Positions 11,450 to 40,022 of a DNA stretch of 59,542 nucleotides are shown piece by piece. The position numbers and the translations under genes are program-made. The notes under the pieces are model-generated. The model was given only the letters and a program-made list of their open reading frames with translations, was not told the DNA's origin and did not search any database. How positions within the stretch are numbered: position 1 is the stretch's first letter; each line of letters starts with the position of its first letter. Source of the DNA: an uncultured Schlesneria sp. (lineage in GTDB: Bacteria > Planctomycetota > Planctomycetia > Planctomycetales > Planctomycetaceae). The DNA is taken from NCBI GenBank assembly GCA_903899985.1, contig CAIULL010000118.1, forward strand, positions 1-59,542, in the 5' to 3' direction.

Positions 11450-11454
11450 TGTGA

Positions 11455-13069: not shown

Positions 13070-13174
13070 GGGAAAATCTTTCTGAATTGAGAGATGCTGT
13101 TCTTCAAAGAAAAGGTAAGGCACATTGTTCGAAGTACTAACGTTTGATCTTTGCACGGCGCGAAGATTGTCCTC

Positions 13175-13254: not shown

Positions 13255-13339
13255 GGGGTTGCGGGCAATGTCTGCTCAAGGCTATTAGCGCGTCAGAAAC
13301 AGGGTAAAACCTGGATTGAAAGCCGTGGGCTGTGGTTCG

Positions 13340-14626: not shown

Positions 14627-14905
14627 GCGGCGTATTAAACACAAGAAACGACAAAACAAAAACAGGAAAACGCATGTTGTTTCTTAATGTTTGGAAGATG
14701 CTCATGAGAAATGGGGGAAAATGGGTTTGGTGAAGACGTCAAAAAGCGTCAAAATGCTGATGTGGGCGAGAGTTAGGGTGAAATGCCTGCTTCGGAGGGG
14801 TTTCCCGATTGGGCAACGCCAAGACGATTTTTGTCGATACCGAGCTTGGGTGCCACGGTTTCGCCTGGCTTAAATTACGAAGGCGTCGACGATGATCGGA
14901 CGAAG

Positions 14906-15027
14906 CCCCACCCGCCGCAGGGGTGGTGGTCAACGGGCTTTTGCACCAGCCAGCATTCATGAAGACGCAATGGAATGTAAAGGCCTAGGGCAAAGGCCCG
15001 TTAACCACCGCCGCAGGGGCGGTGGGG
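14906..15027. repeat. Dispersed inverted repeat family R1, second complete copy
   Basis: The right arm (14986-15027) reads TAGGGCAAAGGCCCGTTAAC and on through GGCGGTGGGG, almost identical to the arm at 2739-2780. The left arm (14906-14944) is more diverged. The spacer differs from copy 1. It begins 33 bases after the stop of the PHP metallohydrolase, and the 433-base gap to the protease gene shows no other feature, so it may terminate transcription between host and phage-like genes. Confidence 0.85.
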
Positions 15028-15059
15028 TGGGTCCCTCTTAGAAATCTTCGCGACTTGGT

Positions 15060-17564
15060 TTAGGGGGCGGTGGATTCGGTAGCGACTTTGTTGTAGATCT
15101 CGCGGGCTTTGTCGTAGGCTGCGCGTGCTGCAGGACGTTCGGTTTCGCGGATGGCCCGTTGTTTGGAGTTCCAGCAAACATCAACCGCTTTTGCACACCA
15201 TTCGGCGCTTTGTCGACTTGCTCGAATCGGTTTTCCAGCCACTTCAATAAAGATCGGATTCGTATGGCAGGAGGGGAGGATTCGCAGGGCAACCCAACTG
15301 GACTGGTTGATGTCGATTTCAAAATCCAGGTGTTGCACCGAGCCATCGGCAGCAATTGATCTGGTCGCTGCGACCTGGCCATTAACGATCAATTCGACTG
15401 GGACCGTTCGCGTATCATCGATCCGACATCGTTCCAGGTGCCAGTAAGGTTTATCGTCCAGTCGTTTTGACCGGATTGCCTCAGTCGCGGGTGTCGGTTT
15501 CTCGGCGAGTAATGCCGCGGCATCACAAGTGAAACGAACCTTCCCCGGCTTCGAAAGATCAAGCTGACTAGCCTTTCCATTCGCGCCGATTCCGCCCAAC
15601 TCACAATGCGAAGACGATTCACCTATTCGAGACCCATCTTGCGACGCGCGTGAACCGGCTGTGCCGGCGGCGAATGAGAGAATATGGCTCAGGCCGTCTC
15701 CACAGTAGCTGCGGCCGTCTTTGAGGCCCTGGACCCAGTCGTCGTAATTGAGCGGCTTGTCGGTGGGGAGCTTGACATAGATTCGACCGAGTCCGACTTT
15801 GTCGCCGTAAATACAGGGGAAATCGGTTTCTCCACTGATCCGGGTTCTCATGCCGCAGTTGAGCGTGTGATACCAGATGTTAAGTTCCCAGATGGCGGGA
15901 GTATCGACTGCGGAAATAAAGTCGCAGGCACCATGGGCGGTGGTGACGATGAACTCGTTTGCTCCGATCCCATCGAAGCGTGGCATGGCGAGATCGGGCA
16001 ATTTGTCGGCGGCACGGCCCTGCCAGCCTGTTGCCGCACCACCCCAGGGTCGATCGGCAAATTTGCGAGAACCATCGGGCATTACGTCGGGCAGGGCGAG
16101 TCCCCAGCCACTGTGGCTGTATCCGACGACGCCCCCTTGTTTCTGGCCCCATTCGAGGACGGGCTGCGTCCACGTCGGCCATTCCTCAAGCAGGGTTGTT
16201 CCCGGATAGTCATCTTCAATCAGTTTGAGCAGGCAGAGATGCCCGGCGTGTGACGAGGGGAATCCGGAGACTTCCACGTCGTAACGCATCAGGTAATTCG
16301 GTCGCGATAATGCGGACGTTTTTCCTTCAAAATATCGCTTCTGTGTGTACCAGCAGGGACCCCAGGATAGGACACAACCAACATTCAGATCTTCGCCCAG
16401 GATGTGCCGCATCATATCACCGGGAGTGACACCTTCGGTCGGGCTGTCATAATGAGCGCAGCCGGCGGCATGGACATGATGATCACCGGAGAACCAGCCG
16501 AGTTTGGCGGCATGAATCCATCGACGAAGCTGAAAATCGAGACGCTGGCTGACTCCGTCGATCGCCACATTGAACTTGTGGGTATCAACATGAAATTCGG
16601 GTCCGCGCTGAACGATGGCGGTATATTGACCTGGTGGAAGCATGACCGATTCGCCGTCCGCTCGATAGATTTGTTCGTGAAAAAAGAAATCAGGAGCCAG
16701 ACGACGAGCGGGATTGGGGTAGACTCGGCCGTACGCGTCACGAATCGTCAGTGCGGCAAATGTCGGTGTTCCATCGAAATCTTTAATGCCGAGAACGACT
16801 TCGATCGCGGGAACACAATCGAACAGGACGGGAACCGAGTTTCGAAAGCCGAGATCTTGCGTCCCCTGGCCGACGTGAAATCCAATCTGTGCTTCCCGTT
16901 TTCCGATGTCGCGGCTGAAAAGTTGGATCACCCGGTATTCAAGTTCCAATCCCGAGAGGCCTGGTTTTAATGGCTGTTTGTCGAACATCTGAGCGTCGAG
17001 GAACCGGTTCGGAACATCCGAAGGCTGGACCAGTTTTTCGTCGGTCATCGGCTTTTCACGGGCGTTTTTTGTTCCTCTCTGGAAAACGGGGAGGAGATTT
17101 GCACTTTCAGGGACGAGTGGCGCGGTAACCCCTGCTTCGTTGTGAACTTTGACGAGAAACGTTCGCCAACCCTGCTGTACCAGCTGTTTCTGAGCAGTCC
17201 CTTCAATCACTGAAACGCGGCTTTCGGCGTTGATGCTGACGGCAACCAGACATCGCGGATCAAGGAGACGTTGGATGGCCGTTGTGGCATCAGCCTCATC
17301 CGTCAACTTCAATGCTTCATCCAGTTTTTTCCGAGTATCGGCATCCAGGGGAGAGCCAACGAAGTCGAGCGCCTGTACGAGACGTTCCGTCGCGGCGGTT
17401 AATGGCTGGCGTTCCACTCGGCCAACCATCGGCCACTTGCCATCAGCCGCCAGTACTTGAGCGGTGTAATTGGCACAAAACGCGAGGCCCAGTAACAAGA
17501 AAAAACGTGCCAGCATTCTGATTCGTGCTGAAACGTTCGCCAGTCTCCAGGTTGCGTCGCACAT
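15060..17564 (-). CDS. Secreted CehA/McbA-type PHP-fold metallohydrolase
   Basis: An 834-residue exported protein. ATG 17564 is supported by AGGAGA at 17571-17576. A basic N-terminus precedes a signal sequence ending near residue 40 (QVLAA). Residues about 350-700 form a PHP-type domain: GWFSGDHHVHAAGC near residue 358 supplies the metal-binding HxH, and further His and Asp residues follow in GYSHSGWG and SGETDFP. The domain ends with a GRSYCGDGLSH motif. CehA-type proteins are predicted phosphoesterases or hydrolases, common and multiplied in planctomycetes; the substrate is unknown. A short insertion near residue 640 coincides with repeat R3. Beta-rich regions flank the enzyme domain. Confidence 0.8.
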   Translation of the reverse strand: MCDATWRLANVSARIRMLARFFLLLGLAFCANYTAQVLAADGKWPMVGRVERQPLTAATERLVQALDFVGSPLDADTRKKLDEALKLTDEADATTAIQRLLDPRCLVAVSINAESRVSVIEGTAQKQLVQQGWRTFLVKVHNEAGVTAPLVPESANLLPVFQRGTKNAREKPMTDEKLVQPSDVPNRFLDAQMFDKQPLKPGLSGLELEYRVIQLFSRDIGKREAQIGFHVGQGTQDLGFRNSVPVLFDCVPAIEVVLGIKDFDGTPTFAALTIRDAYGRVYPNPARRLAPDFFFHEQIYRADGESVMLPPGQYTAIVQRGPEFHVDTHKFNVAIDGVSQRLDFQLRRWIHAAKLGWFSGDHHVHAAGCAHYDSPTEGVTPGDMMRHILGEDLNVGCVLSWGPCWYTQKRYFEGKTSALSRPNYLMRYDVEVSGFPSSHAGHLCLLKLIEDDYPGTTLLEEWPTWTQPVLEWGQKQGGVVGYSHSGWGLALPDVMPDGSRKFADRPWGGAATGWQGRAADKLPDLAMPRFDGIGANEFIVTTAHGACDFISAVDTPAIWELNIWYHTLNCGMRTRISGETDFPCIYGDKVGLGRIYVKLPTDKPLNYDDWVQGLKDGRSYCGDGLSHILSFAAGTAGSRASQDGSRIGESSSHCELGGIGANGKASQLDLSKPGKVRFTCDAAALLAEKPTPATEAIRSKRLDDKPYWHLERCRIDDTRTVPVELIVNGQVAATRSIAADGSVQHLDFEIDINQSSWVALRILPSCHTNPIFIEVAGKPIRASRQSAEWCAKAVDVCWNSKQRAIRETERPAARAAYDKAREIYNKVATESTAP
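15620..15682. repeat. Dispersed repeat R3 inside the PHP gene
   Basis: About 63 bases align with 39229-39292 inside lpxK; the core TGCGACGCGC..TG.ACCGGCTGTGCCGG differs at only two positions over 28. Here the element lies antisense to the gene and encodes part of the Ser/Gly-rich segment after LSHILSF. It contains an ACCGGCTGTGCCGG palindrome. Confidence 0.75.
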
Positions 17565-18160
17565 GGAAGCTCTCCTAATCGATAGTCAATCGCAGCAATC
17601 AATGAAAGATCATGGAATTCACATCGATAAGAGTCAATCGGCGAGGAAAGAAAAGTACCGGCAACGTACGTCGCATCATGAACTTAAGAAGAGCTCATCG
17701 CGATTCATAAAGTGATGCCTCACGGATGACTTCGATCCTGGTTGAGATGAGCTCAAAAGCGGATCTCTTGAGTACCTTCCAAACATTAAGAAGCAACTCG
17801 CATTGTAATATTGACATTGTATGATGTTTGTTGTAAAAAATATGTCGCTTTTGTCGGGTGGAAACGCTGCACGTCATCAGGGCGCTTCGGAGGGTTTAGA
17901 GACCCCGGCTTGCCTGGTTGAATTTGCGGGTAACAAGGAAGGATCTGTGGAGTCACTTTCCGGGCTCGCATGGACGTCCATGAAACTACGACCTGACGAC
18001 AGCAAATGGTCTTTGACATTTCAGAAATCAATGTGATACGGATCGCCCCCACGGTCAGCAATTGGTACGGGTGTGGGGTGGTTCGTGGCTTGCCCGGATA
18101 GGTGCGATCGAGTCTGTGTTTTAAGGTGAGAACACATTTGCGCGGCAGGAGCGGAGAAAT

Positions 18161-18220
18161 TCGAACTGCGTCGAACTCGATCGAACCGCGTCGAACCGCG
18201 TCGAACCGCGTCGAACTCGA
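18161..18220. repeat. Tandem 10-bp repeat array A (6 units)
   Basis: Six contiguous 10-base units of the form TCGAACNNNN: TCGAACTGCG, TCGAACTCGA, TCGAACCGCG three times, TCGAACTCGA. There are no insertions between units. Confidence 0.95.
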
Positions 18221-18438
18221 ACACCCCGAAAAAAATCGACAAAACCCTATGAAATACGAGGAATGGTCGAAGTCGATCGAACTTGATCGAACTTTGACAC
18301 CAAATCTCGCGGTGGGATTACGGTGGAACCCAAGGGAAGATTGTTGAACAGAAGGGACGACGAGAAGAAGATCGCAACAGGACTTCGGTCGGTATTGCTG
18401 CGGGGGGCGGAACCCTCTCGTACGACGCGATAGTCAGA

Positions 18439-18498
18439 TCGAACTCGGGTGAAGTCGGGTGAAGTCGGGTGAAGTCGGGTGAAGTCGGGTGAACTTTT
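18439..18498. repeat. Tandem 10-bp repeat array B (6 units)
   Basis: TCGAACTCGG followed by four identical GTGAAGTCGG units and a terminal GTGAACTTTT. The period is exactly 10 bases. The conserved GAGGAATGGTCGAAGTCG block follows at about 18545. Confidence 0.95.
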
Positions 18499-18778
18499 TA
18501 AAAGAGAGACGCGGGGAAAAGGATCGCCAAAAGCCTATGAATGATGAGGAATGGTCGAAGTCGCGCGAAGTCGCGCGAACTTTTCGATCAGATTTGGCGG
18601 CGATTGAGTTTCAGCGGAATGCGGCAAAATGTTTTTGATCATCAGTCAACGAAGTGAAGAAATTATTTGAGACCTTAGGTCGGTTGTTTGTGCGGGGGGG
18701 GCGGGAGACCCACTCGCCACAACACTGGCGGGGTCTGGAGAACACTTGCACGACAGGTGGAGTCGGATTGAACACTGT

Positions 18779-18888
18779 CGAACTCAGGTGAACTCAGGTG
18801 AAGTCGGGTGAACTCAGGTGAAGTCGGGTGAACTCAGGTGAAGTCGGGTGAACTCAGGTGAAGTCGGGTGAAGTCGGGTGAACTTTTT
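18779..18888. repeat. Tandem 10-bp repeat array C (11 units)
   Basis: After TCGAACTCAG, the units alternate between GTGAACTCAG and GTGAAGTCGG in the order a, b, a, b, a, b, a, b, b, and end in GTGAACTTTT. The period is exactly 10 bases. The conserved block follows at about 18930. Confidence 0.95.
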
Positions 18889-19432
18889 CACGACAGAAAC
18901 AGGGAAGATGATCGCAAAAAGCCTATGAATTATGAGGAATGGTCGAAGTCGCGCGAAGTCGCGCGAACTTTTCGATCAGATTTCACGGCGCATTATTCCA
19001 GTAGAACTCCAGAGCGCGAAAAGTCCGAGAGCTCCCGCTACCCGGCTGGCTCACCGGTGAGCAGATGGGATTTGAAGTCGATCAAAATTTGACACCAAAT
19101 TTCTCGGCGGGATAGCAGCTGAACGTAAGAGAAGATTTTTGAACAGAAGGACGCGAAGGTCACGAAGTGAAGAAAATTAGATAAGACCATCGGTCGCTTG
19201 TGCGGGGGCGGGAAACCGCTCGCACAACAGGACATGAAAGACGGCTCGGGATGGAACCTCGCCCTCCCGGAGATAAAGTCGCCAAGCGGTAAGCCTCGAA
19301 GACTCGCCCGCACCCTGCAGTTCACTCGACTTTCCTATGAGGTTTGTCCATAGTTGCCCAAACGGTCCCATCGTTGCGCAAGTTCGGCGATCGTCTCGTA
19401 TCACCACAAAAACTGCCAGGAATTCAGTTTCT

Positions 19433-21271
19433 ATGACCAATTCAGTTTTTCCGCAAACTTGGGATCTTGCTTCACTGGCACCGGCACCGTTAACGACCTC
19501 GTTTCGTGAGCAGCTTGATCAATTCAAACAACGGTTGAAGAATCTGGCTGCTGCCACGAACGCGCTGCCATCCGTCGATGCCAAGGCTGAAAACGTTTCG
19601 CGTTGGGTGACATTGATTACCGAGTACGAACACGTGGACGCAACCGGGGCGGACTATCGAGCATTAGCCGACTGTTATGCGGCCGCGGACGCCGAAAACA
19701 AATCGTACCGGCAGTTGCAGGCGGAACTCGCAGCGATCACTCCGGATCGGGAGCAGATAGCAACGAATGTTGAGTTTGCTTTACGCGATGCGGCGGAGTC
19801 GGATTTTCAGGCGTTTGTGGAAGCTGATCCGGTCTTGAAACGGAATCGCTATTTTCTGTTGACGCGGCGACGGAATGCAGAATTGAGATTGCCGAAATCT
19901 CAGGAACTTTTGGCTTCGGACCTGGCGGTCGACGGGTTGTTTGGTTGGGGACGGCTGTACGATCGGATTTCGTCATCGCTCAAAGTTCAGGTTCAAGAAA
20001 AAGGGACTCTGGTCACGCGATCGCCAGGCCAGGTCCAGTTCGATTCGCCTCAGCGGATCGTTCGCGAGAATAACTTTTATGCTCTTGATGGAGCGTGGGC
20101 GACCATCGCCGACACGTGTGCTGACGCCATCAATCATATTGCCGGAACTCGGTTGACGACCTATCGGCATGTCGGCTTAAGAGACCATTTAGAAGCTCCA
20201 TTACGAGCCAACCGGATGACTCGTGAAACACTCGACACAATGTGGTCGACGATTTCGGCGAATAAGAGCGTGTTGAATGAATACCTGACCAAGAAAGCTC
20301 AACTGATTGGTGTTGATCGGCTGGCCTGGTTTGATCAGTGGGCACCGCTTCCTCAGTTGCCGGGCGTCGGGAATGTCGATGACATTTCGTACGATCAGGC
20401 CTGTGAGTGGATCATTGACGCGTTTCAGACGTTTAGTCCTGAACTGGGTGACTTTGCTCGAATGTCACTCGCCGACCGTTGGGTAGAAGCAGAAAACCGA
20501 TCGGGCAAGCAACAGGGGGGATTCTGTACGGGATTTCCGTCCGCTCGACAGTCTCGTATCTTTATGACATACACGAACAGCGCGGACAGCATGAGTACTT
20601 TGGCTCATGAGTTAGGGCACGCGTATCATTCGTGGGTCTTGAGGAATGAACCGGTATTCCTGCAGGACTATCCGATGAATCTGGCTGAAACGGCTTCAAC
20701 ATTTGCTGAGGCAGTGCTTGGCGAACAACGACTGAAACGCGTGACTTCGGATTACGAGCGTCTGCAGATTCTCGATGGAATGCTTGGTGATGCCGTCGCG
20801 TTCTTGATGAATATCCACGCTCGGTTTCTGTTCGAGGATGAATTTCATCAACAAAGAAGCTCGGGCGAACTCACCGCAGATCAGTTAAACAAGATCATGG
20901 AGGAGGCTCAGCGAAAGGCCTATTTGAACGCATTGGCCGAGGATGGATGGAACCCGCGATTCTGGGTATCGAAGCTCCATTTCTACATAACGTCGGTACC
21001 ATTTTATAACTTTCCATACACATTTGGCTATTTGCTTTCGCTGGGCGTGTATGCGATCGGGAAAGAGTCTGGCAAGGATTTTCCAGAATCTTACCGAAAA
21101 CTGTTGTTGGCGACCGGTTGTCAGGATGCGGAGGACGCAGTCGAGTCGACGATGGGCTTTGATTTGAGAAAGCCTGACTTCTGGCAGAAGAGCCTGACAA
21201 TCGTGGCTGATCGCGTGAAGCAGTTCGTTGAGTTGGCGGATCAGATCCTGTCGAAGACAAAAACGGTGTAA
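19433..21271 (+). CDS. pepF: M3 family oligoendopeptidase (PepF-like)
   Basis: A zinc metallopeptidase cutting short peptides, probably cytoplasmic (no signal peptide). The active-site motif HELGH is at residues 392-396, inside STLAHELGHAYHSWVL. About 25 residues later NLAETASTFAEAVL supplies the third zinc ligand (Glu) typical of family M3B. The large helical N-terminal region and the C-terminal YNFPYTFGYLLSLGVY stretch also fit. At about 612 residues it has normal family length. The frame extends upstream to 19337, but ATG 19433 begins the conserved region. It stands alone, with the repeat region upstream. Confidence 0.9.
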   Translation: MTNSVFPQTWDLASLAPAPLTTSFREQLDQFKQRLKNLAAATNALPSVDAKAENVSRWVTLITEYEHVDATGADYRALADCYAAADAENKSYRQLQAELAAITPDREQIATNVEFALRDAAESDFQAFVEADPVLKRNRYFLLTRRRNAELRLPKSQELLASDLAVDGLFGWGRLYDRISSSLKVQVQEKGTLVTRSPGQVQFDSPQRIVRENNFYALDGAWATIADTCADAINHIAGTRLTTYRHVGLRDHLEAPLRANRMTRETLDTMWSTISANKSVLNEYLTKKAQLIGVDRLAWFDQWAPLPQLPGVGNVDDISYDQACEWIIDAFQTFSPELGDFARMSLADRWVEAENRSGKQQGGFCTGFPSARQSRIFMTYTNSADSMSTLAHELGHAYHSWVLRNEPVFLQDYPMNLAETASTFAEAVLGEQRLKRVTSDYERLQILDGMLGDAVAFLMNIHARFLFEDEFHQQRSSGELTADQLNKIMEEAQRKAYLNALAEDGWNPRFWVSKLHFYITSVPFYNFPYTFGYLLSLGVYAIGKESGKDFPESYRKLLLATGCQDAEDAVESTMGFDLRKPDFWQKSLTIVADRVKQFVELADQILSKTKTV

Positions 21272-21332
21272 CGGCTGGTTGTTGACTGGTGATTAGAAAA
21301 CCTGGGACATGTTGATACCCACTACGCACGGG

Positions 21333-23810
21333 TTATTTGAGTGCCTGCCATTTGATCCAGCCTTCGTCGAGGAATTTGGCGAAATCACCGTCTTGTTTTT
21401 CGAGACCAAAGAAGCTTGAAAGTACCGTTTTTCCGTCGGGTGTTACGACGGCGTAGGCCGGAAGTGTGACGTCGCCAAACCAGTTTTCCTGCAGCGAGAC
21501 GTTACGAGCCAGCAATCGAGCTGCTTCTGCTTTGTCGTCGATATTCGGGACTCGGTCTGTGTAGATCTGCGCCTGGACGAACTTTTCAAGACGACTGTGG
21601 TTCTTGGGCCTCGCCATGCGGATTTCCATCAATCGACAGTTCGTGCAAAAGACGCCGGTAAAGTCGATAAACAGTGGTCGATTCTGAGATGTTGCCGTGA
21701 TGACGGCCTTGTCGAAATCCTTCTCGAATTCAATGTGATCGACTCGCGCAGGTGCGAAGGCAATCAGCTGATTGACGAACCAGGTTTCTCGATCCGGCTG
21801 AGTCAGGCCAATTCCGAATAATCCGCTAAGCATGAGGAAGCCAATCGCCAACAAAACTCGAATCGGTGACAACCCTTGTACAGGACTGTCGTGTGACAGT
21901 CGAAATTGCCCAAGCAAATACAATCCCGTACAGAATGCGATCACGGCCCAGAGAGTCATGACGTTTGTGAAGTCGAATAGCCACGGCACGGAGTTCCATT
22001 GCTGGTCGACGATACTGATATACTTGACTGCGACTCCCAGTTCGACAAACCCCATGACGACCTTGACAGCGTTCAGCCAACCGCCGCTTTTCGGTAGCGA
22101 TTTCAAAGTGCCAGGCATTAACGCCAGTGCGAAGAACGGAGCAGCGAATGTGGTTCCAAAGGCGAGCATCCCGAGCACTGGCCAGTAGTATTCTCCCTGG
22201 GCTGCTGCCGCGAGCAGTGACCCGACAAACGCGAAGGTACAGCTGAATGAGGTCAGCACGAATGTCAGTGCCATGAAGATCACACCGACGTAACCGCCGG
22301 TCTGTTCGCCCGTGGCAGTGAAACTTACCAGCCACGACGGGACTTGAATTTCGAACAGTCCCAGCATGTTGAGGGCAAACGTAAAGAAGATCGAAGCGAG
22401 GAAGAGATTCAGTATCCAGTTATTCGCAAGTTCATTTGGTTTGGTTGCGCCGAAGATTGCCGCGATACCGACTCCGATCAGGACGAATGAAATGACAATG
22501 GCGGCAGAGAAAACAGTAGCCAGGACGATGGGGCGTCCGCCCTGGCGCTCGTTTTGTTTCAGGAAAAAGCTGACGGTAACTGGCACCATGGGAAAGACGC
22601 AGGGTGTGAGCAACGCCACGAGGGCGGCTCCGACTGCAGTGATCAAGAAGAAAAACAACCCCTTATCCTGCGGTCGCGAACTATGCTTTGGTTCAACGTC
22701 AACAGCCGCTGGTTCCTGAAAGAAGTCGATGTGCGCTGGAGGTTCAATGTCGTCACTGGTGACGCCCAGAATAAACGATTCCTTGCGCGGCGGCAGGCAA
22801 CTGTCTCTACAGGTCTGGTAAGTAATCGAACCTTCGACGCCGAACGCACGTGGGCGGGTGTCCGGCAAGACTTCGAATTCCTGAACCCAGCTCACTTCCT
22901 TATGATAGACTTCTTGTCGAAGCTTCAGTTCTCCTTCGTCGACTTCTTTGATTTCAGGCGGCCGATCAGGGACAAAAGCTTTTCCAATTGCTTTCAACCC
23001 ATAAATCTTGTCTAAAACAATTTCTGTGGCCGTTCCTCCTTCGCCTTTGAAGGAGGTCGAAAAAGTATGCCACTCGGGATCAAGAGCCAAGGTGATTCTG
23101 AGCTTCACCGTTTTGCCACCTGAAGACTTTGTAGGGGCTAATTGAAATCGCAATTCGACCGGGTTCGTTTTTCCCTTTTTTGGACGTTTCGTGAACTTGT
23201 ACGGGACCGTTGGCTCTTCCGCTTCGTTCGATACGGCACCGTTCGAAACAAGGGCTGCGTGGAGTTTCGTTGCGGGCTTGATCAAGTGGCATTCACCACC
23301 TGGTCCTTCGGAGCAATACTGCCCTTCAAGCTCAAGATCGATGGCCACCTTTTCGATCTCGGCCGTGGGTTCAATTCGAAACTTCTTGGACCATGATACG
23401 TCTCCGTGGAACTTAGAAACTTTTTGATTGAAAGAAGAGTCATGTTTGGTTTCGGGCGGTCGATCGGACTGAAATTCAGAATCAACAGGTTCAAGTCCTA
23501 CCGATTTCACTGTTGTGATTTGAGTTCGCCCGCCAAAGTCACCCGTGGTTGCGTAGATATAGGTTTCAGGCGGCAGCTTGGCAGTGATTGTCAGGACGAC
23601 CTGGTCCCCTGGCTTTGCGTCAGATGGAGTTAGCGTTGCGTTGAAGACCGGCTTCTCAGATGACTTCGGGGCAAGTGAGCCGCCCAAAAGATCTTCGAAC
23701 TTCGACTGCCCATCGACGGAGGCAATCAGTCCACACGTGACGATCAACAGTGACGTCAGACAACTTACGGAAATGTACCGAAAGCGGAAATCCTTCGACG
23801 AACAGACCAT
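21333..23810 (-). CDS. DsbD-like thiol:disulfide interchange protein with two N-terminal domains
   Basis: A protein of 825 residues with a signal peptide (to about residue 36). Two Ig-like alpha domains follow, each with a Cys pair: QYCSEGPGGECHL near 167 and YQTCRDSCLPP near 332. A membrane region of about eight helices carries Cys in LLTPCVFPM and FSCTFAFVG, the redox pair of the DsbD/CcdA core. The C-terminal thioredoxin-like domain has CTNC near residue 719. It would pass electrons from cytoplasmic thioredoxin across the membrane to envelope proteins. E. coli DsbD has only one alpha domain, so the tandem pair is unusual. It lies in the same direction as the giant-protein operon, 232 bases downstream. 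Confidence 0.88.
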   Translation of the reverse strand: MVCSSKDFRFRYISVSCLTSLLIVTCGLIASVDGQSKFEDLLGGSLAPKSSEKPVFNATLTPSDAKPGDQVVLTITAKLPPETYIYATTGDFGGRTQITTVKSVGLEPVDSEFQSDRPPETKHDSSFNQKVSKFHGDVSWSKKFRIEPTAEIEKVAIDLELEGQYCSEGPGGECHLIKPATKLHAALVSNGAVSNEAEEPTVPYKFTKRPKKGKTNPVELRFQLAPTKSSGGKTVKLRITLALDPEWHTFSTSFKGEGGTATEIVLDKIYGLKAIGKAFVPDRPPEIKEVDEGELKLRQEVYHKEVSWVQEFEVLPDTRPRAFGVEGSITYQTCRDSCLPPRKESFILGVTSDDIEPPAHIDFFQEPAAVDVEPKHSSRPQDKGLFFFLITAVGAALVALLTPCVFPMVPVTVSFFLKQNERQGGRPIVLATVFSAAIVISFVLIGVGIAAIFGATKPNELANNWILNLFLASIFFTFALNMLGLFEIQVPSWLVSFTATGEQTGGYVGVIFMALTFVLTSFSCTFAFVGSLLAAAAQGEYYWPVLGMLAFGTTFAAPFFALALMPGTLKSLPKSGGWLNAVKVVMGFVELGVAVKYISIVDQQWNSVPWLFDFTNVMTLWAVIAFCTGLYLLGQFRLSHDSPVQGLSPIRVLLAIGFLMLSGLFGIGLTQPDRETWFVNQLIAFAPARVDHIEFEKDFDKAVITATSQNRPLFIDFTGVFCTNCRLMEIRMARPKNHSRLEKFVQAQIYTDRVPNIDDKAEAARLLARNVSLQENWFGDVTLPAYAVVTPDGKTVLSSFFGLEKQDGDFAKFLDEGWIKWQALK

Positions 23811-24041
23811 CGTTTTGCATCCTGCCTAACTTCGTAAGCAGCCACTGTTGGCCGCGATCTCGGTAGAGACATTACGACTAAATGCCTGCAACCGTTGGTT
23901 TGCATCTTAACGGCAGGTCGATCTTTGCCCAACGCGAGTTTGGTCGTTGGCGGACAAAATTCAAAATTAGCGAAAAATCCAACATAAGGTACGCGGCTTG
24001 CATGAGTTAGTGATTGTCGAGAGCGTCATCGCGTTCGAAAC

Positions 24042-32420: not shown

Positions 32421-32467
32421 AAGAAACCTCGCAGCCGAGGAATGGTGTTCGTTGAGTGAGTCAATAT

Positions 32468-35400
32468 TTACGAGGGCGTGGCGACTGCCGGTGGAGGTTC
32501 CGCTGGCGGCGGCGTTGTCGGCGGGGGTACATCTGCTGAAGCGACCGAGGGCTTCAAACTCAGCAAGCCATGAATTAACCAGATCGCAACGAGTGCCCCC
32601 AGCCCGTACGAGGCGACTTGAACTCCGCTAAGAATCAAGTCGTGATCTTTCAATGCATACGCACACGCCGCGAATAACCCCAGGACGACCAGCGTCAACT
32701 TGTTATCCCAGGATGTGTTTCGCAAGAGCAGGGCGATGAAAACCAGGGCACCACTGACGACCCATGTATAAAACGGTAGATGCCACCATCCAACCTCGAT
32801 TTGTTTACTACCACCAAGGTTCATGTACTGAAACCATTTTCCTTCCGTCGGAAAATCAAAGATTCCTCCGGTGTCATGTCCGATCCAGGTGTCGAGATTC
32901 TGTTCCCCAAATGTTGGACTGGTTAGACCCAGAATTGATTCCCTGAGCCTTGTTCTTGTCTGGACACTGAAATTCTGTTGAACCCGGTTTCCCTCCTTAA
33001 TCGTCGGAGTGCCGATGAGAGAATATTCAGGTGGGACCCAGATTTTGGTATACAGCTGTTGAACCGCGACACCGATGTTTCCCTCACCACCAATGACCGG
33101 CAGCCGGGCGAGAAGTTTTCCGCCAGCGTTGGCGAAGGGAGGGGGGTTAAATGAATGACGGAAGACGAGAGACAGCGTGAATGGCTCGTCTGATGGCTTC
33201 GTCCGAGCCACGCTGATGAAATACGAGGTCCAGCCCTTATCCCCTTTCAAGTCCGCTTTTTCGAGTGCCGTTTGTTTACGGTCCACAAACACCCCCAGTA
33301 CATCGACGTTCTCGGGAAGGTCGATCCGAAGCCGCTGTCGTTCGCTCGATTTCAACACGTAACGGCAGCGGTAAATTCCGACACCCGCACGATCCAGGAC
33401 CATCTCGACCAGCGCCTTGCTGACGACAGTCTCGATCACGCCCTGGATATCGTATTTGCTCGATGCGAGATCAATTTTTACCGGTTGCTTGAAGTACCGG
33501 AATGCGACGAATCCATCCTGTGCGATGTTCTGTAATTCCCGAACATCAATCGGTTCGACATCGCCACCGCTCGCCGTCGCTGAAACAGATAACGCTCGAT
33601 CCTTCAAAACCGTGATCTCGCCGGTGGTCCGCGATAACCTGATGTCCCGTTTTCCCTGAGGACCATCGGTATGATCAAACGGGTCCATGGCTTGGATTGG
33701 TTCAATCGCGGCTGACTCTTTATTGGAGCCGCCTGCAGCAGGCACAAAATCATAGTTGATTTCAAATGACTGCGTTCCCAGGACCTCGCGGGGCATCGTC
33801 ACGGTGCAGATCACCCAGCCCTCAACTGCCGGACTCTTTTTGATCGGAGGTGACGATCCGTCGGTGGTCGATTTGATTTGAAGTCGATCAGCGACGGATT
33901 CATGGGCCGAGAATCGAAATGTATCGATTCCCGCGTGTTCAATAATGTAAGTCAAATGAGTTGTGACCTGAACCTGCCCCTGTTTCACCGTCGCTCGGGT
34001 TCCCACAATAGCGGTCAGTCGAGTCGACTTGCGAACCGTTCTTACGGGGATTTCAACCGGCCGTCGATTAAACAACCATGATGAAACTAGCCGGGCATTA
34101 GGGACGACTTCGCGATGAGCTGAAGAATCACGCTGGACAGAGACAAGCTTCTCGTCATCAGTGTTGACTTCAATTGCTTCCGGGGCGTAGATCTGAACTT
34201 TGCCATTTTCAAGCTCGGTCCCGACCGGTTCCAGTAATGGTAATAGCTGGTCTGTTTTTTCGGCAGCGGGGTCCAGCGCGCGAATCGAAGTGATCATGAT
34301 CGCCAGCGTTCCGAGTGTCTTTTCACGCAGGTTGACGGTCAGCCACGTCTTGTCGGGCGAGACATAATATTGCTTCATCTTGTCGCAAATGACATTTTCG
34401 ACTGTCAGTGCATCCGGCAATTTGAACTTCAGTTCGAACACGCCAGCCCTCTCGATCGTATAATTCAAAGTCGACCTGAGTCGAAGTTGATCGTCGCGAA
34501 AAACCAGCTGAGAAGCATGGTCGACAATCAACCGTGGCTCGACGGGCTTCGAAAGCAGTTTCAACCGAAGTGACGGATTGTAATAGTTGTAATACACGGC
34601 TTCAGGGCGTCTGATTTTTTGATCGACATCACCTTCCGCCACGCGGAGAAGTCCACGTTGTTCCTCGACCGTCAAAGTCAGCTCGCTTCCCGACTTCACC
34701 GCGATCTGGCCGCTTTCGCGTATGACATCCATCGCATGGATGCCATATGCAGTTATCCCATCCTGGCCGGCCACGTCAAACGCTTCAACAGGTGCTGCTC
34801 GTTCTGTATGCACTCCCAGTTGAACTTTGCCATCGGCGCGACCGAGTAACTCGACGGTGACAACTTGCCGATTTTCTTCGTCAACAGCTTTCCATTCTTT
34901 GACTTTCGCATCCGAACTGATGTCCAGAACTCGATGCCCTTTTGGAACGGCCAGTTTGAATTTCTCCAACTGTCCGCGAAGAACTTCGTAAGTCAACCAG
35001 GCGTCTGTGTGAATCAGGCCATCTTCGACAGTCACCAGAGTGTGATTTGTAACGCTGGCAAGCAATTCCATATCGGGCTTCGTTCCGATCCGAGGATGCC
35101 AGTGAACTGAGATCTTTTCCGCCGAACCAATTTTTGCCTTGATCTTTGATTCTTTTGCCGCGACTTCGACAGCCTGAGTTGCCAGCTTCGGTTTCAGCTC
35201 CATCGTCTGGTCGGCTTCTGGGACCAGCAGTTCAAAATCGGTGATTCCGACCGCAGGAACATCCAGTTCAACACTTTTCCCCTCTGGAGTGCTTCGGACG
35301 CGCGCGGTCAATTCGAGCGAAATTTTGTGCTCACCCGCAGTTGGCAAAAGTAACGAATAGGTTCCGTTTCCCGTACCTCGGAGCAGGACTTTCCCCGTAT

Positions 35401-35812
35401 CAGATGTCAGCTTGCCGACTGCGGCTTCGCCGAACTTGACCGGAATCTCGGCCCATCCCTTTTCAAGAACCTGAACCACAAGAGTTGCCGAGATCTGAGC
35501 GACATCTTTTTCCACCTTTGCCGAGTAACTGGCCGAAGAAATCACCCCGGAAACCGGGGGCTGATTCGGTTTCCGTAGTCCGTCTCCGAATGCCTTTTCC
35601 CATAATTTCAGATAGTCAGCATAAGGAACAAGAACAGAACCGTCCGGCTTCTCGAAAACAGCCTTTAAGTTCTTGAACGGCATATAGATCAACCGTTCCG
35701 GTGGCTTTTCTTTTTCCGCGTTTCCCCCATTTTGAGACCACGCGGGACTGATCAGGAGACAGAATGTGACACACAGTTTCGCCGCAAGTCCGAAATAGCG
35801 CATTGTTTGCAT
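32468..35812 (-). CDS. Large exported membrane-anchored protein (1114 residues), relative of the giant protein
   Basis: The signal peptide ends near residue 28 (ISPAWSQ). The first domain, IYMPFKNLKAVFEKPDGSVL followed by VPYADYLKLW, parallels the N-terminal domain of the downstream giant protein: the pattern of a F/Y-x-P segment, then G-V/S-x-L-x-P, is shared. About 900 residues of beta-rich sequence follow without recognised enzymatic motifs. Helices near 1000-1085 (including VVSGALVFIALLL and GALVAIWLIHGLL) anchor the C-terminus, which ends in a proline-rich tail. It is probably co-transcribed with the giant gene. It lacks the pseudopilin-like motif and the Cys cluster. The function is unknown; an envelope structural or surface role is inferred. 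Confidence 0.8.
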   Translation of the reverse strand: MQTMRYFGLAAKLCVTFCLLISPAWSQNGGNAEKEKPPERLIYMPFKNLKAVFEKPDGSVLVPYADYLKLWEKAFGDGLRKPNQPPVSGVISSASYSAKVEKDVAQISATLVVQVLEKGWAEIPVKFGEAAVGKLTSDTGKVLLRGTGNGTYSLLLPTAGEHKISLELTARVRSTPEGKSVELDVPAVGITDFELLVPEADQTMELKPKLATQAVEVAAKESKIKAKIGSAEKISVHWHPRIGTKPDMELLASVTNHTLVTVEDGLIHTDAWLTYEVLRGQLEKFKLAVPKGHRVLDISSDAKVKEWKAVDEENRQVVTVELLGRADGKVQLGVHTERAAPVEAFDVAGQDGITAYGIHAMDVIRESGQIAVKSGSELTLTVEEQRGLLRVAEGDVDQKIRRPEAVYYNYYNPSLRLKLLSKPVEPRLIVDHASQLVFRDDQLRLRSTLNYTIERAGVFELKFKLPDALTVENVICDKMKQYYVSPDKTWLTVNLREKTLGTLAIMITSIRALDPAAEKTDQLLPLLEPVGTELENGKVQIYAPEAIEVNTDDEKLVSVQRDSSAHREVVPNARLVSSWLFNRRPVEIPVRTVRKSTRLTAIVGTRATVKQGQVQVTTHLTYIIEHAGIDTFRFSAHESVADRLQIKSTTDGSSPPIKKSPAVEGWVICTVTMPREVLGTQSFEINYDFVPAAGGSNKESAAIEPIQAMDPFDHTDGPQGKRDIRLSRTTGEITVLKDRALSVSATASGGDVEPIDVRELQNIAQDGFVAFRYFKQPVKIDLASSKYDIQGVIETVVSKALVEMVLDRAGVGIYRCRYVLKSSERQRLRIDLPENVDVLGVFVDRKQTALEKADLKGDKGWTSYFISVARTKPSDEPFTLSLVFRHSFNPPPFANAGGKLLARLPVIGGEGNIGVAVQQLYTKIWVPPEYSLIGTPTIKEGNRVQQNFSVQTRTRLRESILGLTSPTFGEQNLDTWIGHDTGGIFDFPTEGKWFQYMNLGGSKQIEVGWWHLPFYTWVVSGALVFIALLLRNTSWDNKLTLVVLGLFAACAYALKDHDLILSGVQVASYGLGALVAIWLIHGLLSLKPSVASADVPPPTTPPPAEPPPAVATPS

Positions 35813-36266
35813 AGGCCAGTCCTACTTTTCCTGATGCTGCGAGTCGCTACGCAGCGCCATAATTCGGGAGGTTCCCGTTAACAGGGTAACTTCAGCAGAT
35901 AGGGAAGTTGATGTCGAGTCTGACGATTCGGAAAACCGGTCAAAATCGGCGAGAGAACGGGATCGCACGCATCAATCAATTTGAGTATACGATTTGACGC
36001 AAGAAATGGCGGGAAAACTCCCGATTTTGCCTGAATCGTAAGAAAAATTCAGCTCAACGTTGTCTCAAAGTCAAAAAGTACAAACGTTCCTGAGGTTCGG
36101 TCAGTGTGTCGCGTCTCGATTGATACTCCTGTCGGTTGTTTCGCCTCCGGAAACCGAGCGCATCTGATGTGGTGGCCGTTGCAAAGCCATACACCGCCTA
36201 AATCTGAAGGAAGCGAGCCCGTAACTCCGTCATCTGGTTCAGTCAAAAATCCTTCCAGTCTGTAAC
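35813..36266. other. Intergenic region upstream of the giant-protein operon
   Basis: A gap of 454 bases between the trypsin-like gene and the operon, both on the minus strand. A small palindrome CGGGAAAACTCCCG lies near 36012-36025. A 65-codon minus-strand frame (36049-36246) begins with TTG and shows no recognisable features, so I do not call it. The region probably holds the operon promoter, but no sequence box stands out. Confidence 0.4.
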
Positions 36267-37067
36267 TTATCTACTCATCATCAACTCGATCGTTTCCCGT
36301 AAAAAAGCCGCCTGACCAACGATCGAAAGGCTCAGCGGCGTATGCATGGTTTTTTCTTCAAACGGCAGCGACGATCGGTCCGTCTGTCGATGCATTCCTA
36401 AAACAACCCCGACGACAAATGGTTGCTCGTTGACGATCATCGCGACAGGGGCACCGCTGTCTCCACCGAAGGCCCGATAGTCGATCAGCATTGTTTTCGT
36501 CGATTTTAGTGGAGTTAACGGGTGCGAAGCGATGGAGCCTTTCCTCAGGACCGGCCATCCTGCCTCGTTGGCTTCAAGCTTTGCGGGGTAACACGGGATC
36601 CACGTCTCACGACCCACTCGCACTGTTTTGTCGATGACATGAGCTTCATCAGCCAGTTGATCCAGCAAAAGTGGTTTGACAGAAATGTTTTCTGGTAAAT
36701 CGACAAAAATTGTCGCGATATCAATTTCAGGATGACGGGTCCACAACTGTTTCCCTTCGTTTCGAACCAAGATTGTCAGGGGTTGACGGGAAAAAACCTG
36801 GTCTTCGTTCACAGACCGTAAAAACAATTCACATTCATTTCCCGCCATTTGTTCCATCACGTGCGCAGCGGTGGCAAGGATCACACGACGAGGTTTTAAA
36901 GCGTCGACTTCTTTTGTCGCGATTAAAAAACAGGTGCCCGAATGCTCTCGATCAGCGATGCGAAATGTCGCCTGAAGCAATTCTTCGACAGGACTGTCTG
37001 CAATCGATTCCCGGGTCACGAGAATCAAAACGAGTAGAATCAGCTTCTGAGTGATTCGTACAGCCAT
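36267..37067 (-). CDS. Exported trypsin-like serine protease
   Basis: A protein of 266 residues from ATG 37067, giving a clean signal peptide (residues 1-24, LILLVLILV core, SIADS). The catalytic triad of the chymotrypsin fold is visible: His69 in ATAAHV, Asp116 in EIDIATI, Ser204 in GGDSGAP. It has only the protease domain, without PDZ domains, so it is not a standard DegP/HtrA. The open frame extends to 37112, but that adds a polar stretch before the signal peptide. The gene overlaps the C-terminal end of a small upstream frame by 28 bases. The substrate is unknown; it acts in the periplasm or outside the cell. Confidence 0.8.
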   Translation of the reverse strand: MAVRITQKLILLVLILVTRESIADSPVEELLQATFRIADREHSGTCFLIATKEVDALKPRRVILATAAHVMEQMAGNECELFLRSVNEDQVFSRQPLTILVRNEGKQLWTRHPEIDIATIFVDLPENISVKPLLLDQLADEAHVIDKTVRVGRETWIPCYPAKLEANEAGWPVLRKGSIASHPLTPLKSTKTMLIDYRAFGGDSGAPVAMIVNEQPFVVGVVLGMHRQTDRSSLPFEEKTMHTPLSLSIVGQAAFLRETIELMMSR

Positions 37068-37327
37068 GAGACAAGCCTCTGTGCGTTGAAGGAGTAATTG
37101 CCGTTGCTGCATAACATTACGTTCTCATTCCCAAAACAGACAAGAGGGATTTCCTCCAGGAACTGCTTCCTTGAGCCGGTCATTTCGATGTTTTTGATGC
37201 GCAGGGATTCAATCTCTGTCAGCTCAACGGCTGCGCCTATAGGAAATGTCAGATTTGCTTCGGATGGTATCCCTTGCAACGTTGCAGCGGGTTGTGTTAG
37301 GGTCAAAGTTTGTGCATCGTGTGCCAA
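37040..37327 (-). CDS. Small hypothetical protein overlapping the protease start
   Basis: A 95-codon frame whose end overlaps the trypsin-like gene start by 28 bases. It contains a plausible alpha/beta sequence with two cysteines (residues about 68-76) and no signal peptide. No family was recognised. Overlap in the same direction could mean coupling to the protease. However, the frame covers only part of the 418-base gap before the divergent isocitrate dehydrogenase gene and may be fortuitous. Confidence 0.3.
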   Translation of the reverse strand: MAHDAQTLTLTQPAATLQGIPSEANLTFPIGAAVELTEIESLRIKNIEMTGSRKQFLEEIPLVCFGNENVMLCSNGNYSFNAQRLVSWLYESLRS

Positions 37328-37485
37328 TCCTGATGCCGTCGAGTCGGTCGGTGTCAGCCCCTCGATTCTTCTTCCATGTTCAGAGTGCGTCTGGCGAATG
37401 GTCGTAAAAGAATCTCAGGGCTAACGCCGAAGTGCTCGCGTGCTTCGGTACGTTTGTTCTTCTGATGAAAGAGTCACCAGTCAAT

Positions 37486-38658
37486 ATGCATAATGTTACT
37501 CTTATTCCAGGCGATGGTGTTGGTCCTGAAATTGCCGAAGCAACCCGACGGTGCGTGGAAGCGACCGGCGTGAAAATCAGTTGGGATGTCCAGGAGTGTG
37601 GGATCGAAGTGATCGAGAAAGTCGGCAAAGTGCCTGATTCCGTTCTCGCCTCGATTCGTAAAAATAAGGTGGCTTTGAAGGCTCCGATCACCACCCCGAT
37701 CGGGAAAGGTTTTCGTTCAGTCAACGTTTTCCTCCGTCAAGAACTCGGTTTGTACGCATGCCTTCGTCCGTGCAAAAGTTTCCCTGGCGTCCGTACCTAT
37801 TTCAGTGAATCGAACGTCAACCTTGTCGTCGTTCGTGAAAATACCGAAGACCTGTACGCGGGGGTCGAGTTCCAGGCTGGTCTTCCCGCCACCGCAGAAT
37901 TGATTCAGGCAATCAACAAGGCTGCAACGGGCAAGAAAATCACGACGGGCCTGGAGACGACCGGGATCAGTATCAAGCCAATTTCGACGGAAGGGACTCG
38001 AAATATCGCGAATTTCGCGTTTGATTATGCCGTTAAACATGGTCGAAAGTCGGTAACCTCCGTCTGTAAGGCCAATATCATGAAGTTCACCGACGGCCTG
38101 TGGTACGATGAATCGCGTGCTGTGGCGGCGTCCTATAAAGCGAAATTCGAACAGCCAGAATTGAAATCGAAATCAGATCCAACTCTCGATGGCAAGGTGC
38201 CGGATGGTAGTCACGTCACGTACATGGAACGTCTGATTGACAACATGTGCATGCAACTCGTTCAGAAGCCGGAATTGTATGATGTCATCCTGCTTCCAAA
38301 CCTTTACGGCGACATTCTCAGCGACCTTTGTGCCGGTCTGGTCGGTGGACTCGGGGTCGCACCAGGCGCCAATTACGGCGCCGATTCTGCAATCTTTGAA
38401 GCGACTCACGGAAGTGCTCCCAAATACAAAGGCCAGAATAAGGTCAACCCGACCGCTCTGATCCTCTCCGCAAAATTGATGCTCGAACATCTCGGCGAAC
38501 AAAAAGCCGCCGATCGACTCGAAGCTGCGGTCGCGAGTGTTATCTCGGAAGGCAAAGACGTCACCTACGATCTCAAGCCGCACCGCACCGATCCGACTGC
38601 AGTTGGTACCAGCCAGATGGCTGATGCGATCTGCAAGAAGGTTGCCGAACTCGCATGA
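37486..38658 (+). CDS. Isocitrate/isopropylmalate family dehydrogenase, probably NAD-isocitrate dehydrogenase
   Basis: Catalyses oxidative decarboxylation of a 2-hydroxy acid, most likely isocitrate to 2-oxoglutarate in the TCA cycle. From ATG 37486 it gives 390 residues starting with the family motif [22 protein letters not shown] and [20 protein letters not shown] follow. The metal-binding block [19 protein letters not shown] and the nucleotide-binding loop [20 protein letters not shown] follow in turn. [10 protein letters not shown] favours isocitrate dehydrogenase over LeuB. An in-frame start at 37432 would add a poorly conserved 18 residues. It is monocistronic, with an R5 repeat downstream. 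Confidence 0.85.
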
Positions 38659-38714
38659 TTTCACTGGAAGTTTTGATGAGCCGGATGGCGTAAGCCTCTG
38701 GACTCGCCGGTCTT

Positions 38715-38816
38715 GAAGAGGGGTCGGGCGTTCAAGTTTCAAATTTGGCTGCCCGGCCCCTGGTTTTATTTCAGGTCGATGGATGAACCAATGTTGAAAT
38801 TGGAGCACCCGACCCC
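38715..38816. repeat. Dispersed inverted repeat family R5, complete copy
   Basis: The left arm GAAGAGGGGTCGGGCGTTCA continues as AGTTTCAAATTTGGC (to 38749). The right arm CCAATGTTGAAATTGGAGCA continues to CCCGACCCC (38788-38816). The arms pair imperfectly. The element ends 18 bases before the lpxK start codon and so takes the place of its ribosome-binding region. The left arm matches 59452-59496. A remnant (GGATGGCGTAAGCCTC) near 38685 may be a further element. Confidence 0.8.
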
Positions 38817-38834
38817 GAAAGCCAAAGTCGCTGA

Positions 38835-40022
38835 ATGGACGAAGCCGCTCTGCACGAACTGCTCTCGGGAAGCCGTCGCGATGTCGCTGCGAAGCTGCTT
38901 CGTGGCGGGCTGCAAGTTGCCTCATGGGGTTACGCCTCGGTAATGAGCTTGCGGAATCTGGCCTATGCCAGAGAATGGTTTCGGGTTCATCAAGTCTCTG
39001 TTCCTGTCATCAGCTTCGGTAACATCACCACGGGCGGGACCGGCAAAACCCCGATGGCGGCATGGTTAGCGAATTGGCTGGTCGCTCAAGGCCATAAGCC
39101 TGGACTACTGAGCCGAGGCTATCGAACTCTCGATCGGGGATCTCATTCTCAGTCCATAGGTAAGCTCAATCAAAGTAAATCCCTCGACAAACCCCTACCC
39201 GATAACATCTCAAAACGCGAGAACGACACTCCTATTTTAAACCCGTCATGCGACGCGCATGGACCGGCTGTGCCGGGGGGAAATGATGAGAAGCTGGTTT
39301 TGGATCGACTTTGTCCGGGAGTTCCGCATCTTCAGCAACGGGACCGAGTGAACTCCGCTCGCCGGGTCATTGCTGAGTGTGGTTGTGATGTTTTGTTGCT
39401 GGACGATGGGTTTCAACATCGCCGATTGCATCGGGATCTCGATCTCGTTCTCGTTGATGCATTGAAGCCCTGGGGTTATGGACATGTGTTGCCTCGCGGT
39501 CTGCTGCGGGAGCCGATGAGTGGTTTACGTCGAGCGGATGTGATTGTCATTACGCGAGCCGATCAGTGTTCATCGGACCAACTTCAGAACTTGCGGGCAG
39601 AGTTACGTCGAATTCGAGGTCGCGATGATTGTGTTGAAGTTGCGTTCAAGCCGACTCGTCTGGTCGATGTGAACTGGCACCCGTACCCTTTAAGTTCTGT
39701 CGTTGGAATGAAAGCATTGGCGTTTTGCGGGATCGGCAATCCCGACGGCTTTCGTAAAACGGTAAGTTCACTCGGGGTGACCTGCAATCTGGTTCAAGGA
39801 TTTCCCGATCACCATCACTACCAATTCAATGACCTTGAAAAACTGGCCAAGACGGCTCAAATGCATTCGGTGGATGTCGTATTCGTCACGCAGAAGGACA
39901 TCGTAAAAATTTCGGCGGATGCCTGGCACGGACCGCCACTTTTCGCGGTCGAGATTGGCGTCGAATTTCTCCGTGGCCGCGAGTTCCTGGAAACTCGCTT
40001 ACGGCAAACCCTGGGTTCGTAG
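38835..40022 (+). CDS. lpxK: Tetraacyldisaccharide 4'-kinase
   Basis: Phosphorylates the lipid A precursor disaccharide at the 4' position on the inner membrane. The family hallmarks are present: an N-terminal membrane-associated helix (residues about 15-45), the Walker A loop FGNITTGGTGKTP (61-73), LLSRGY (91-96), and DDGFQHRRLHRDLDLVLVDA (190-209). RGLLREP follows. At 395 residues it is longer than the usual 320-350 because residues about 100-148 (39132-39278) form an insertion between LLSRGY and the GNDE motif. That insertion contains dispersed repeat R3. An R5 repeat lies directly before the start, and no Shine-Dalgarno motif is visible. Confidence 0.88.
   Translation: MDEAALHELLSGSRRDVAAKLLRGGLQVASWGYASVMSLRNLAYAREWFRVHQVSVPVISFGNITTGGTGKTPMAAWLANWLVAQGHKPGLLSRGYRTLDRGSHSQSIGKLNQSKSLDKPLPDNISKRENDTPILNPSCDAHGPAVPGGNDEKLVLDRLCPGVPHLQQRDRVNSARRVIAECGCDVLLLDDGFQHRRLHRDLDLVLVDALKPWGYGHVLPRGLLREPMSGLRRADVIVITRADQCSSDQLQNLRAELRRIRGRDDCVEVAFKPTRLVDVNWHPYPLSSVVGMKALAFCGIGNPDGFRKTVSSLGVTCNLVQGFPDHHHYQFNDLEKLAKTAQMHSVDVVFVTQKDIVKISADAWHGPPLFAVEIGVEFLRGREFLETRLRQTLGS
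39229..39292. repeat. Dispersed repeat R3 inside lpxK
   Basis: Sixty-four bases align with 15620-15682 in the PHP gene. The core TGCGACGCGC.TG.ACCGGCTGTGCCGG is nearly identical. It lies in the 49-residue insertion of LpxK and contributes the residues CDAHGPAVPGG without breaking the frame. Confidence 0.75.

What the first reader, a model, noticed from the sequence alone, without database searches (positions are those of the whole stretch)
15620..39292. R3: a repeat shared inside two unrelated coding sequences
About 63 bases at 15620-15682 (antisense within the PHP gene) align with 39229-39292 (sense within lpxK). Neither frame is broken. In LpxK the repeat lies in an extra 49-residue segment between LLSRGY and the GNDE motif; in the PHP protein it lies in an extra Ser/Gly-rich loop. 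This recalls the Rickettsia palindromic elements, which insert in frame into genes, and I know of no description in planctomycetes.
Basis: partly seen in the sequence, partly recalled or inferred. Interest (0 to 1): 0.75.

Follow-up and report, generated by a model that had tools for sequence, protein, structure and literature searches.

The report
Dispersed DNA repeat inside genes
The two matching stretches are copies of a 64-base repeat found about 150 times, whole or in part, in a lake planctomycete genome, mostly between genes and often right after one, but sometimes inside a gene, where it adds about 21 amino acids without breaking the protein.

Summary
The match is real: two copies of a sharply bounded 64-nt repeat (here E64; window 15604-15667 and 39213-39276). 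A model of it gives 152 matches, whole or partial, in this genome and 124-140 in three other uncultured Schlesneria genomes, 0-6 in 11 further genus members, and none in 10 genomes of other genera. Most copies examined are intergenic (84 of 98). Where a gene lies within 400 nt, the hairpin end is within 15 nt of the stop end of a convergent gene in 39 of 90 cases, the other end in 0 of 57. A minority sit in frame inside genes: lpxK, the PHP gene, an SPFH gene, an Hsp70 relative (two sites), a WYL regulator, a Cas4-Cas1 fusion (five copies) and a gene with a weak DUF7133 match. Orthologous copies differ mainly at positions variable in the whole family, and are conserved at synonymous sites: DNA-level constraint or gene conversion. 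It works like REPs and Rickettsia palindromic elements, but lacks the GTAG/CGTC head and any long palindrome. No mobilising enzyme and no clean empty site were found. New variant of a known kind.

The parts
15604..15667 (+). E64 copy 1, antisense inside the PHP-gene ORF (about residues 633-654, GTAGSRASQDGSRIGESSSHC)
   Evidence: covariance model hit 74.6 bits; copy at the same site in G001, G004, G005; not seen in the other orthologues read
15655..15667 (+). terminal hairpin CCGGC-TGT-GCCGG of copy 1
   Evidence: sequence; compensated stem variants across the family
39213..39276 (+). E64 copy 2, sense, inside lpxK (KRENDTPILNPSCDAHGPAVPG)
   Evidence: covariance model hit 82.0 bits; copy in all four carriers, two in G005
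39264..39276 (+). terminal hairpin of copy 2
   Evidence: sequence
39126..39278 (+). 51-codon linker between SRGYR and GNDE of LpxK that holds copy 2
   Evidence: lies between the two blocks aligned to solved LpxK 4ehw, 46 query residues against 16 in the chain
38835..40022 (+). host ORF 2, lpxK
   Evidence: Pfam LpxK E 4.1e-76

Best explanation
E64 is a non-autonomous, REP-like dispersed repeat that is abundant in four Schlesneria genomes. Shown: a 64-nt unit with sharp ends and a 13-nt terminal hairpin; also a hairpin-less form of about 51 nt and tandem arrays; a frequent place directly behind stop codons, hairpin towards the gene; open-frame residence in seven gene families. Inferred: copies inside genes survive because one frame of the element strand is stop-free (QRaNDxPILNPSsDAHePAVP) and because they lie in linkers that vary in length anyway, so the protein gains a probably disordered loop. 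Also inferred: an unidentified cellular activity spread the element, largely before the four carriers separated. Since then the copies have been held close to the family consensus by selection on the DNA or RNA, or by gene conversion, and are not simply decaying.
For: Copy number and sharp boundaries. Restricted distribution. Stop-end adjacency 39 of 90 at the hairpin end against 0 of 57 at the 5' end (Fisher p 8e-11; G000 alone 17 of 41 against 0 of 27, p 4e-5). Open-frame copies in LpxK, PHP, SPFH, Hsp70-like (two sites), WYL, Cas4-Cas1 (five copies) and a DUF7133-like gene. Sense frame 0 stop-free in 194 of 227 copies, the most open of the six frames. Hairpin: leaving out the 38-nt array, 20 compensated cells against 1.75 in shuffles and 48 broken cells against 91, 229 copies. 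Third-codon-position identity inside the element against the rest of the gene: PHP 0.94/0.67, LpxK 0.81/0.68, SPFH 0.84/0.72, Hsp70 0.87/0.67 and 0.72/0.68. Between orthologous copies, difference rate 0.17-0.38 at family-variable positions and 0.01-0.13 at family-conserved ones, in six locus sets.
Against: No mobilising enzyme was identified: the 11 Y1_Tnp hits of G000 lie in 10 regions, of which 2 hold an E64 within about 1.2 kb of the hit; 0 of 10 regions from the other carriers do. No clean recent insertion with an exact empty site or target duplication was found; of eight G000 sites queried, the three where G005 lacks E64 show imprecise junctions or other sequence in its place, so transposition itself is inferred. 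64 is not a multiple of 3, so in-frame residence needs further small changes that were not reconstructed. Neither strand of the consensus folds unusually well (19 and 12 of 200 shuffles as good). The slow-evolution result is strong at one site (0 of 782 windows), weaker at three (16 of 323, 36 of 258, 30 of 981) and absent at one (306 of 981). Expression of the genes with inserts is not shown.
Confidence: 0.77

Rival explanations
1. E64 is primarily a functional 3'-UTR or chromosome-structuring element, kept by selection for a protein or RNA that recognises it; copies inside genes are functional too.
For: Fixed orientation at stop codons; conservation at fixed loci including synonymous sites; compensated hairpin changes.
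Against: In-gene copies occur in both orientations; close relatives live without the family; no recognising factor known; gene conversion could give the same pattern.
Confidence: 0.3
2. E64 belongs to the GTAG/CGTC REPs, or is moved by RAYT (Y1) transposases.
For: Y1_Tnp genes are common in the genus; 3'-end location as described for REPs (PMC3733652). [quoted passage not shown]
Against: The hairpin lacks a GTAG or CGTC head and the 8-9 bp stem described for CGTC repeats; no Y1 gene in the 20 regions examined is flanked by a pair of copies. The consensus sequences in the paper's figures were not available for comparison.
Confidence: 0.12
3. A shared peptide module (protein-level homology or domain shuffling) explains the match.
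For: The same peptide QRxxDxPILNPSxDAH occurs in several proteins.
Against: 84 of 98 own-genome copies examined are intergenic, and the PHP and DUF7133-like copies are read from the other strand.
Confidence: 0.02
4. A CRISPR repeat or degenerate CRISPR array.
For: Tandem arrays with periods of 64-88 nt; 12 matches, 3 of them partial, on the 17-kb G005 contig that carries cas4-cas1.
Against: Spacing varies and the units repeat as wholes; the CRISPR-like array on that contig has a different repeat (GCTTCAATGGGGCCATGCTTTAGG, 72-74 nt period).
Confidence: 0.02

Closest known systems
Rickettsia palindromic elements (RPE)
   Same: short repeats that lie in frame in unrelated protein genes and also outside genes
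   Different: RPEs are palindromic and about 150 bp as first reported (PMC10969869 passages); E64 is 64 nt with a small terminal hairpin only, and mostly intergenic
REP elements, GTAG and CGTC superfamilies (PMC3733652; also PMC2817692 passages)
   Same: often over 100 copies, hairpin, close to gene 3' ends, sometimes providing stop codons, sometimes in frame inside genes; reported in Planctomycetes
   Different: no GTAG/CGTC head at the hairpin; about 50 nt of conserved sequence beside it without a supported palindrome; a hairpin-less form exists; no RAYT link seen
MITEs in general (PMC10969869 passages)
   Same: small, non-autonomous, can make in-frame fusions
   Different: no terminal inverted repeats in the consensus and no target duplication seen

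Membership tests
Rickettsia palindromic element | long near-palindrome over most of the unit | tested here: not met
   RNAalifold keeps only the end hairpin and mutual information gives the left stem no support; single-sequence folding predicts a left stem, but not better than shuffles
Rickettsia palindromic element | in-frame copies in several unrelated genes | tested here: met
GTAG/CGTC REP | GTAG or CGTC tetranucleotide at the head of the hairpin | tested here: not met
   family consensus; definition. The consensus sequences in the paper's figures were not held
GTAG/CGTC REP | location close to gene 3' ends | tested here: met
RAYT-mobilised REP | Y1 transposase gene flanked by two inverted copies (PMC2817692 passage) | tested here: not met
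   0 of 20 regions with Y1_Tnp hits (10 regions with the 11 hits of G000; 10 regions for 10 of the 38 hits of the other carriers)
MITE | terminal inverted repeats and target-site duplication | tested here: inconclusive
   no inverted ends in the consensus; no precise empty site
any Rfam family | covariance model match at gathering score | tested here: not met
   0 matches in five loci, 13,813 bases

The most novel reading that the evidence does not exclude
E64 is a sequence-specific signal, read by an unknown cellular factor, that marks gene ends and is also maintained inside protein-coding genes, so that synonymous sites within those genes are under selection for a DNA or RNA element that invaded them.
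Probability: 0.22. Interest if true: 0.75.

Novelty: new variant of a known kind. Interest (0 to 1): 0.52.

Why it matters
It gives a bacterial genus, with carrier species and close relatives that lack the repeat, in which invasion of protein genes by a short repeat can be followed gene by gene. The signs that copies are conserved after insertion make it possible to test whether such repeats are debris or working elements.

Tried and rejected
A left stem-loop looked plausible by eye and in single-sequence folding but had no support from RNAalifold or mutual information. A case I recalled as LL-diaminopimelate aminotransferase (L053; no family call made) was dropped because the element lies before the likely start codon. 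Not counted as intragenic, because the element is near the ORF start or the ORF may be spurious: L001, L034, L091, L047, L104, L112, L201, L283, L287, L290 and the sense reading of L033, L198, L100 and L210. For the SPFH gene no match was found outside the four carriers (4 of 15 genomes), so its insertion is not shown by an empty site; orthologues of the WYL and DUF7133-like genes were not searched for. In the 40-row model alignment, 6 of the 45 divergent copies picked were left out and the consensus was added. Hairpin count: one search gave 38 compensated cells against 3.7, but 12 of its 25 sequences are not such hairpins (9 belong to the 38-nt array); one search repeats it without the array. 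Most loci were fetched with patterns that contain the hairpin, so the sample leans to intact hairpins. The pattern search also gave single matches with 2-3 mismatches in G007, G014 and G020 and one reversed-control match in G032; the flanks of the G007 and G020 ones (L032, L031) do not fit the element, that of G014 (L033) does. The all-against-all search for empty sites was swamped by repeats. The CRISPR idea was rejected; one viral-contig scan with a 28-letter pattern found nothing.
Full report
OBSERVATION. The window pair is an 81-nt, 78% direct repeat whose core matched twice in the window and in none of 100 shuffles. In the whole genome (8.0 Mb, 296 contigs) a 28-nt core gave 63 matches with up to 3 mismatches; the reversed control gave none. 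Aligning 69 isolated matches shows conservation that starts and stops abruptly, giving a 64-nt unit: CAACGCGCGAACGATnnCCCTATTCTgAACCCRTCnTnCGACGCGCATnAACCGGCTGTGCCGG. The window copies are 15604-15667 and 39213-39276. I call the unit E64; the name is mine.

DISTRIBUTION. A covariance model built from 40 sequences (39 copies plus the consensus) gave 152 matches at E 0.001 in this genome, whole copies and shorter forms together, and 140, 124 and 137 in G001, G004 and G005. Only 150 candidates per genome are scored, so these may be too low. The other 11 genus members gave 0-6 (G002 1, G003 1, G006 6, G007 3, G014 2, six with none), and 10 genomes of other genera none. By identity of the PHP and LpxK proteins the three other carriers are the nearest to G000 (90-92% and 79-87%; next best 84% and 68%); no species tree was made. 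A named-genome scan returned 73 stretches, 72 of them on three uncultured Schlesneria MAGs (Umea2_bin-1599, Umea3_bin-3867, AM-lipid-02-D2_bin-1310) and one on a contig binned as an actinobacterium. That the window is Schlesneria is inferred from its same-genus relation to genomes whose contig numbers match those MAGs. One viral-contig scan with an exact 28-letter pattern found nothing. No Rfam family matches five loci.

ANATOMY. The last 13 nt form a hairpin, CCGGC-TGT-GCCGG. Of 229 copies (38-nt array left out), 221 keep at least 4 of 5 pairs; 20 cells are compensated double changes against 1.75 in shuffles and 48 are broken against 91. The variants include CCGCC/GGCGG, CCCGC/GCGGG and CCCCC/GGGGG: 16 sequences in all, of which 3 are misfits. 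The sample leans to intact hairpins, because most loci were fetched with patterns that contain it. A second stem in the left part is not supported. In 13 of 16 further low-scoring G000 regions the first 51 nt or so are present without the hairpin and mostly run into AAA; at C40 the core recurs with a 38-nt period, because CAACGCGCGAAC and CGACGCGCATGAA act as an internal direct repeat. Many copies are in head-to-tail arrays, some at contig ends.

WHERE COPIES LIE. Of 98 own-genome copies in the loci examined, 84 are intergenic, 8 inside a predicted coding stretch and 6 overlap one (a codon-usage screen of my own, not a gene caller). Looking at ends with a predicted gene within 400 nt and no further copy within 150 nt, the hairpin end is within 15 nt of the stop end of a convergent gene in 17 of 41 G000 cases and 22 of 49 cases in the other carriers. 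At the opposite end this was 0 of 27 and 0 of 30. Fisher p is 8e-11 pooled, 4e-5 for G000 alone and 4e-6 for the others; copies shared by descent are not independent. This is where REPs are reported to lie (PMC3733652 section 15).

COPIES INSIDE GENES. LpxK: all four carriers have the element in the SRGYR-GNDE linker (50-83 residues), two copies in G005; 9 non-carrier genus members have 12-29 residues there. In solved LpxK 4ehw the corresponding gap between aligned blocks is 16 residues against 46 here. PHP gene: antisense, same site in all four carriers. SPFH/Band-7 protein: all four carriers. Hsp70-like protein with DUF3731: two sites in all four carriers, one of them degenerate in G001; G003, a non-carrier, shows a diverged similar stretch at the second site. 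WYL regulator: G001 and G005. Cas4-Cas1 fusion: five copies in three linkers in G005; the linkers of G002, G007 and G008 are shorter or unrelated. A gene with a DUF7133 match below the curated cut-off: antisense in G000, G005 and G014. All sense copies counted here use one frame, QRxxDxPILNPSxDAHxPAVP, which is stop-free in 194 of 227 copies against 32-113 for the other five frames. How 64 nt, not a multiple of 3, came to be in frame was not reconstructed.

CONSTRAINT. In four genes (five sites) shared by the four carriers, identity at third codon positions inside the element against the rest of the gene is 0.94/0.67 (PHP; 0 of 782 equal-length windows reach it), 0.81/0.68 (LpxK; 16 of 323), 0.84/0.72 (SPFH; 36 of 258), 0.87/0.67 (Hsp70 site 1; 30 of 981) and 0.72/0.68 (site 2; 306 of 981). 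In six sets of orthologous copies (three genic, three intergenic) differences fall at family-variable positions (rate 0.17-0.38) more than at family-conserved ones (0.01-0.13); mean identity of orthologues is 0.82-0.94, of random copies 0.78. The genic sets were found through the gene, not the repeat, so they were not selected for being intact; the intergenic sets were chosen among sites where a copy is still recognised. The pattern is expected if the DNA or RNA is under selection after insertion, or if copies are homogenised by gene conversion. I cannot separate the two.

HOW IT SPREAD. Not shown. Y1 transposases are common in the genus (11 hits in G000, 49 in the four carriers), but no gene in the 20 regions examined is flanked by a pair of copies, and E64 lies near the hit in only 2 of them. 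Of eight G000 intergenic sites queried in the other carriers, one is occupied in all four; one in G000, G001 and G004 with a probable but imprecise empty site in G005; one by spacing in G000, G001 and G004, with another repeat in G005; one in G000 and, by place, in G001, with other sequence in G005; one in G000 and G004; three could not be judged. In the 40-kb stretch compared, G001 has a copy that G000 and G004 lack. Together with the gene sites this suggests that much of the spread predates the separation of the carriers, with later gain or loss.

KNOWN OR NEW. REPs near gene ends and in-frame REPs in genes are known, including in the PVC superphylum (PMC3733652; abstract, passages and section 15 seen; its figures with the consensus sequences are not held, so E64 was compared with the described heads and stems only). 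RPEs are the classic case (PMC10969869 passages; the Ogata 2002 paper is not held). E64 fails a defining test of each (no GTAG/CGTC head, no long palindrome). Six searches for repeats in Planctomycetes or Schlesneria or for in-frame elements listed no paper that, from title and start of abstract, describes this family; most subscription papers are not in that library.

Noticed in passing
L327 (G005:C118) 1-17000: A CRISPR-like array (repeat GCTTCAATGGGGCCATGCTTTAGG, 72-74 nt period), then three tandem E64 copies that end one base before the cas4-cas1 ORF, five more copies in that gene (one of them a 51-nt partial match), one at 5479-5542 and one in the WYL regulator at 15.2 kb: a local excess of E64 at a cas locus.
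   Followed up: partly
window 2648-2782, 14901-15029, 59371-59419: A second repeat family (CTAGGGCAAAGGCCCGTTAACCACCGCCGC...) in direct and inverted copies.
   Followed up: no
L010, L019, L027, L029 and others, directly 5' of E64: Another hairpin repeat (GAGTCCGGGGGCTGACGCACCCCGGCTCGCC) often directly precedes E64 and is translated in frame with it (such as RGLTPPGSP) in cas4-cas1, the WYL gene and lpxK of G005.
   Followed up: partly
window 18208-18990: 10-nt tandem repeats GAAGTCGGGT in an intergenic region; G001 has an E64 copy in the corresponding region and the window does not.
   Followed up: no
L071 (CAINLV010000037.1): A contig binned as an uncultured actinobacterium carries E64 and resembles a Schlesneria locus (L248) at about 84%: probably mis-binned.
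   Followed up: no
L229 (G000:C40:7498-7904): About ten copies of a 38-nt unit derived from the E64 core; the likely orthologous G005 site (L090) has a single E64.
   Followed up: partly
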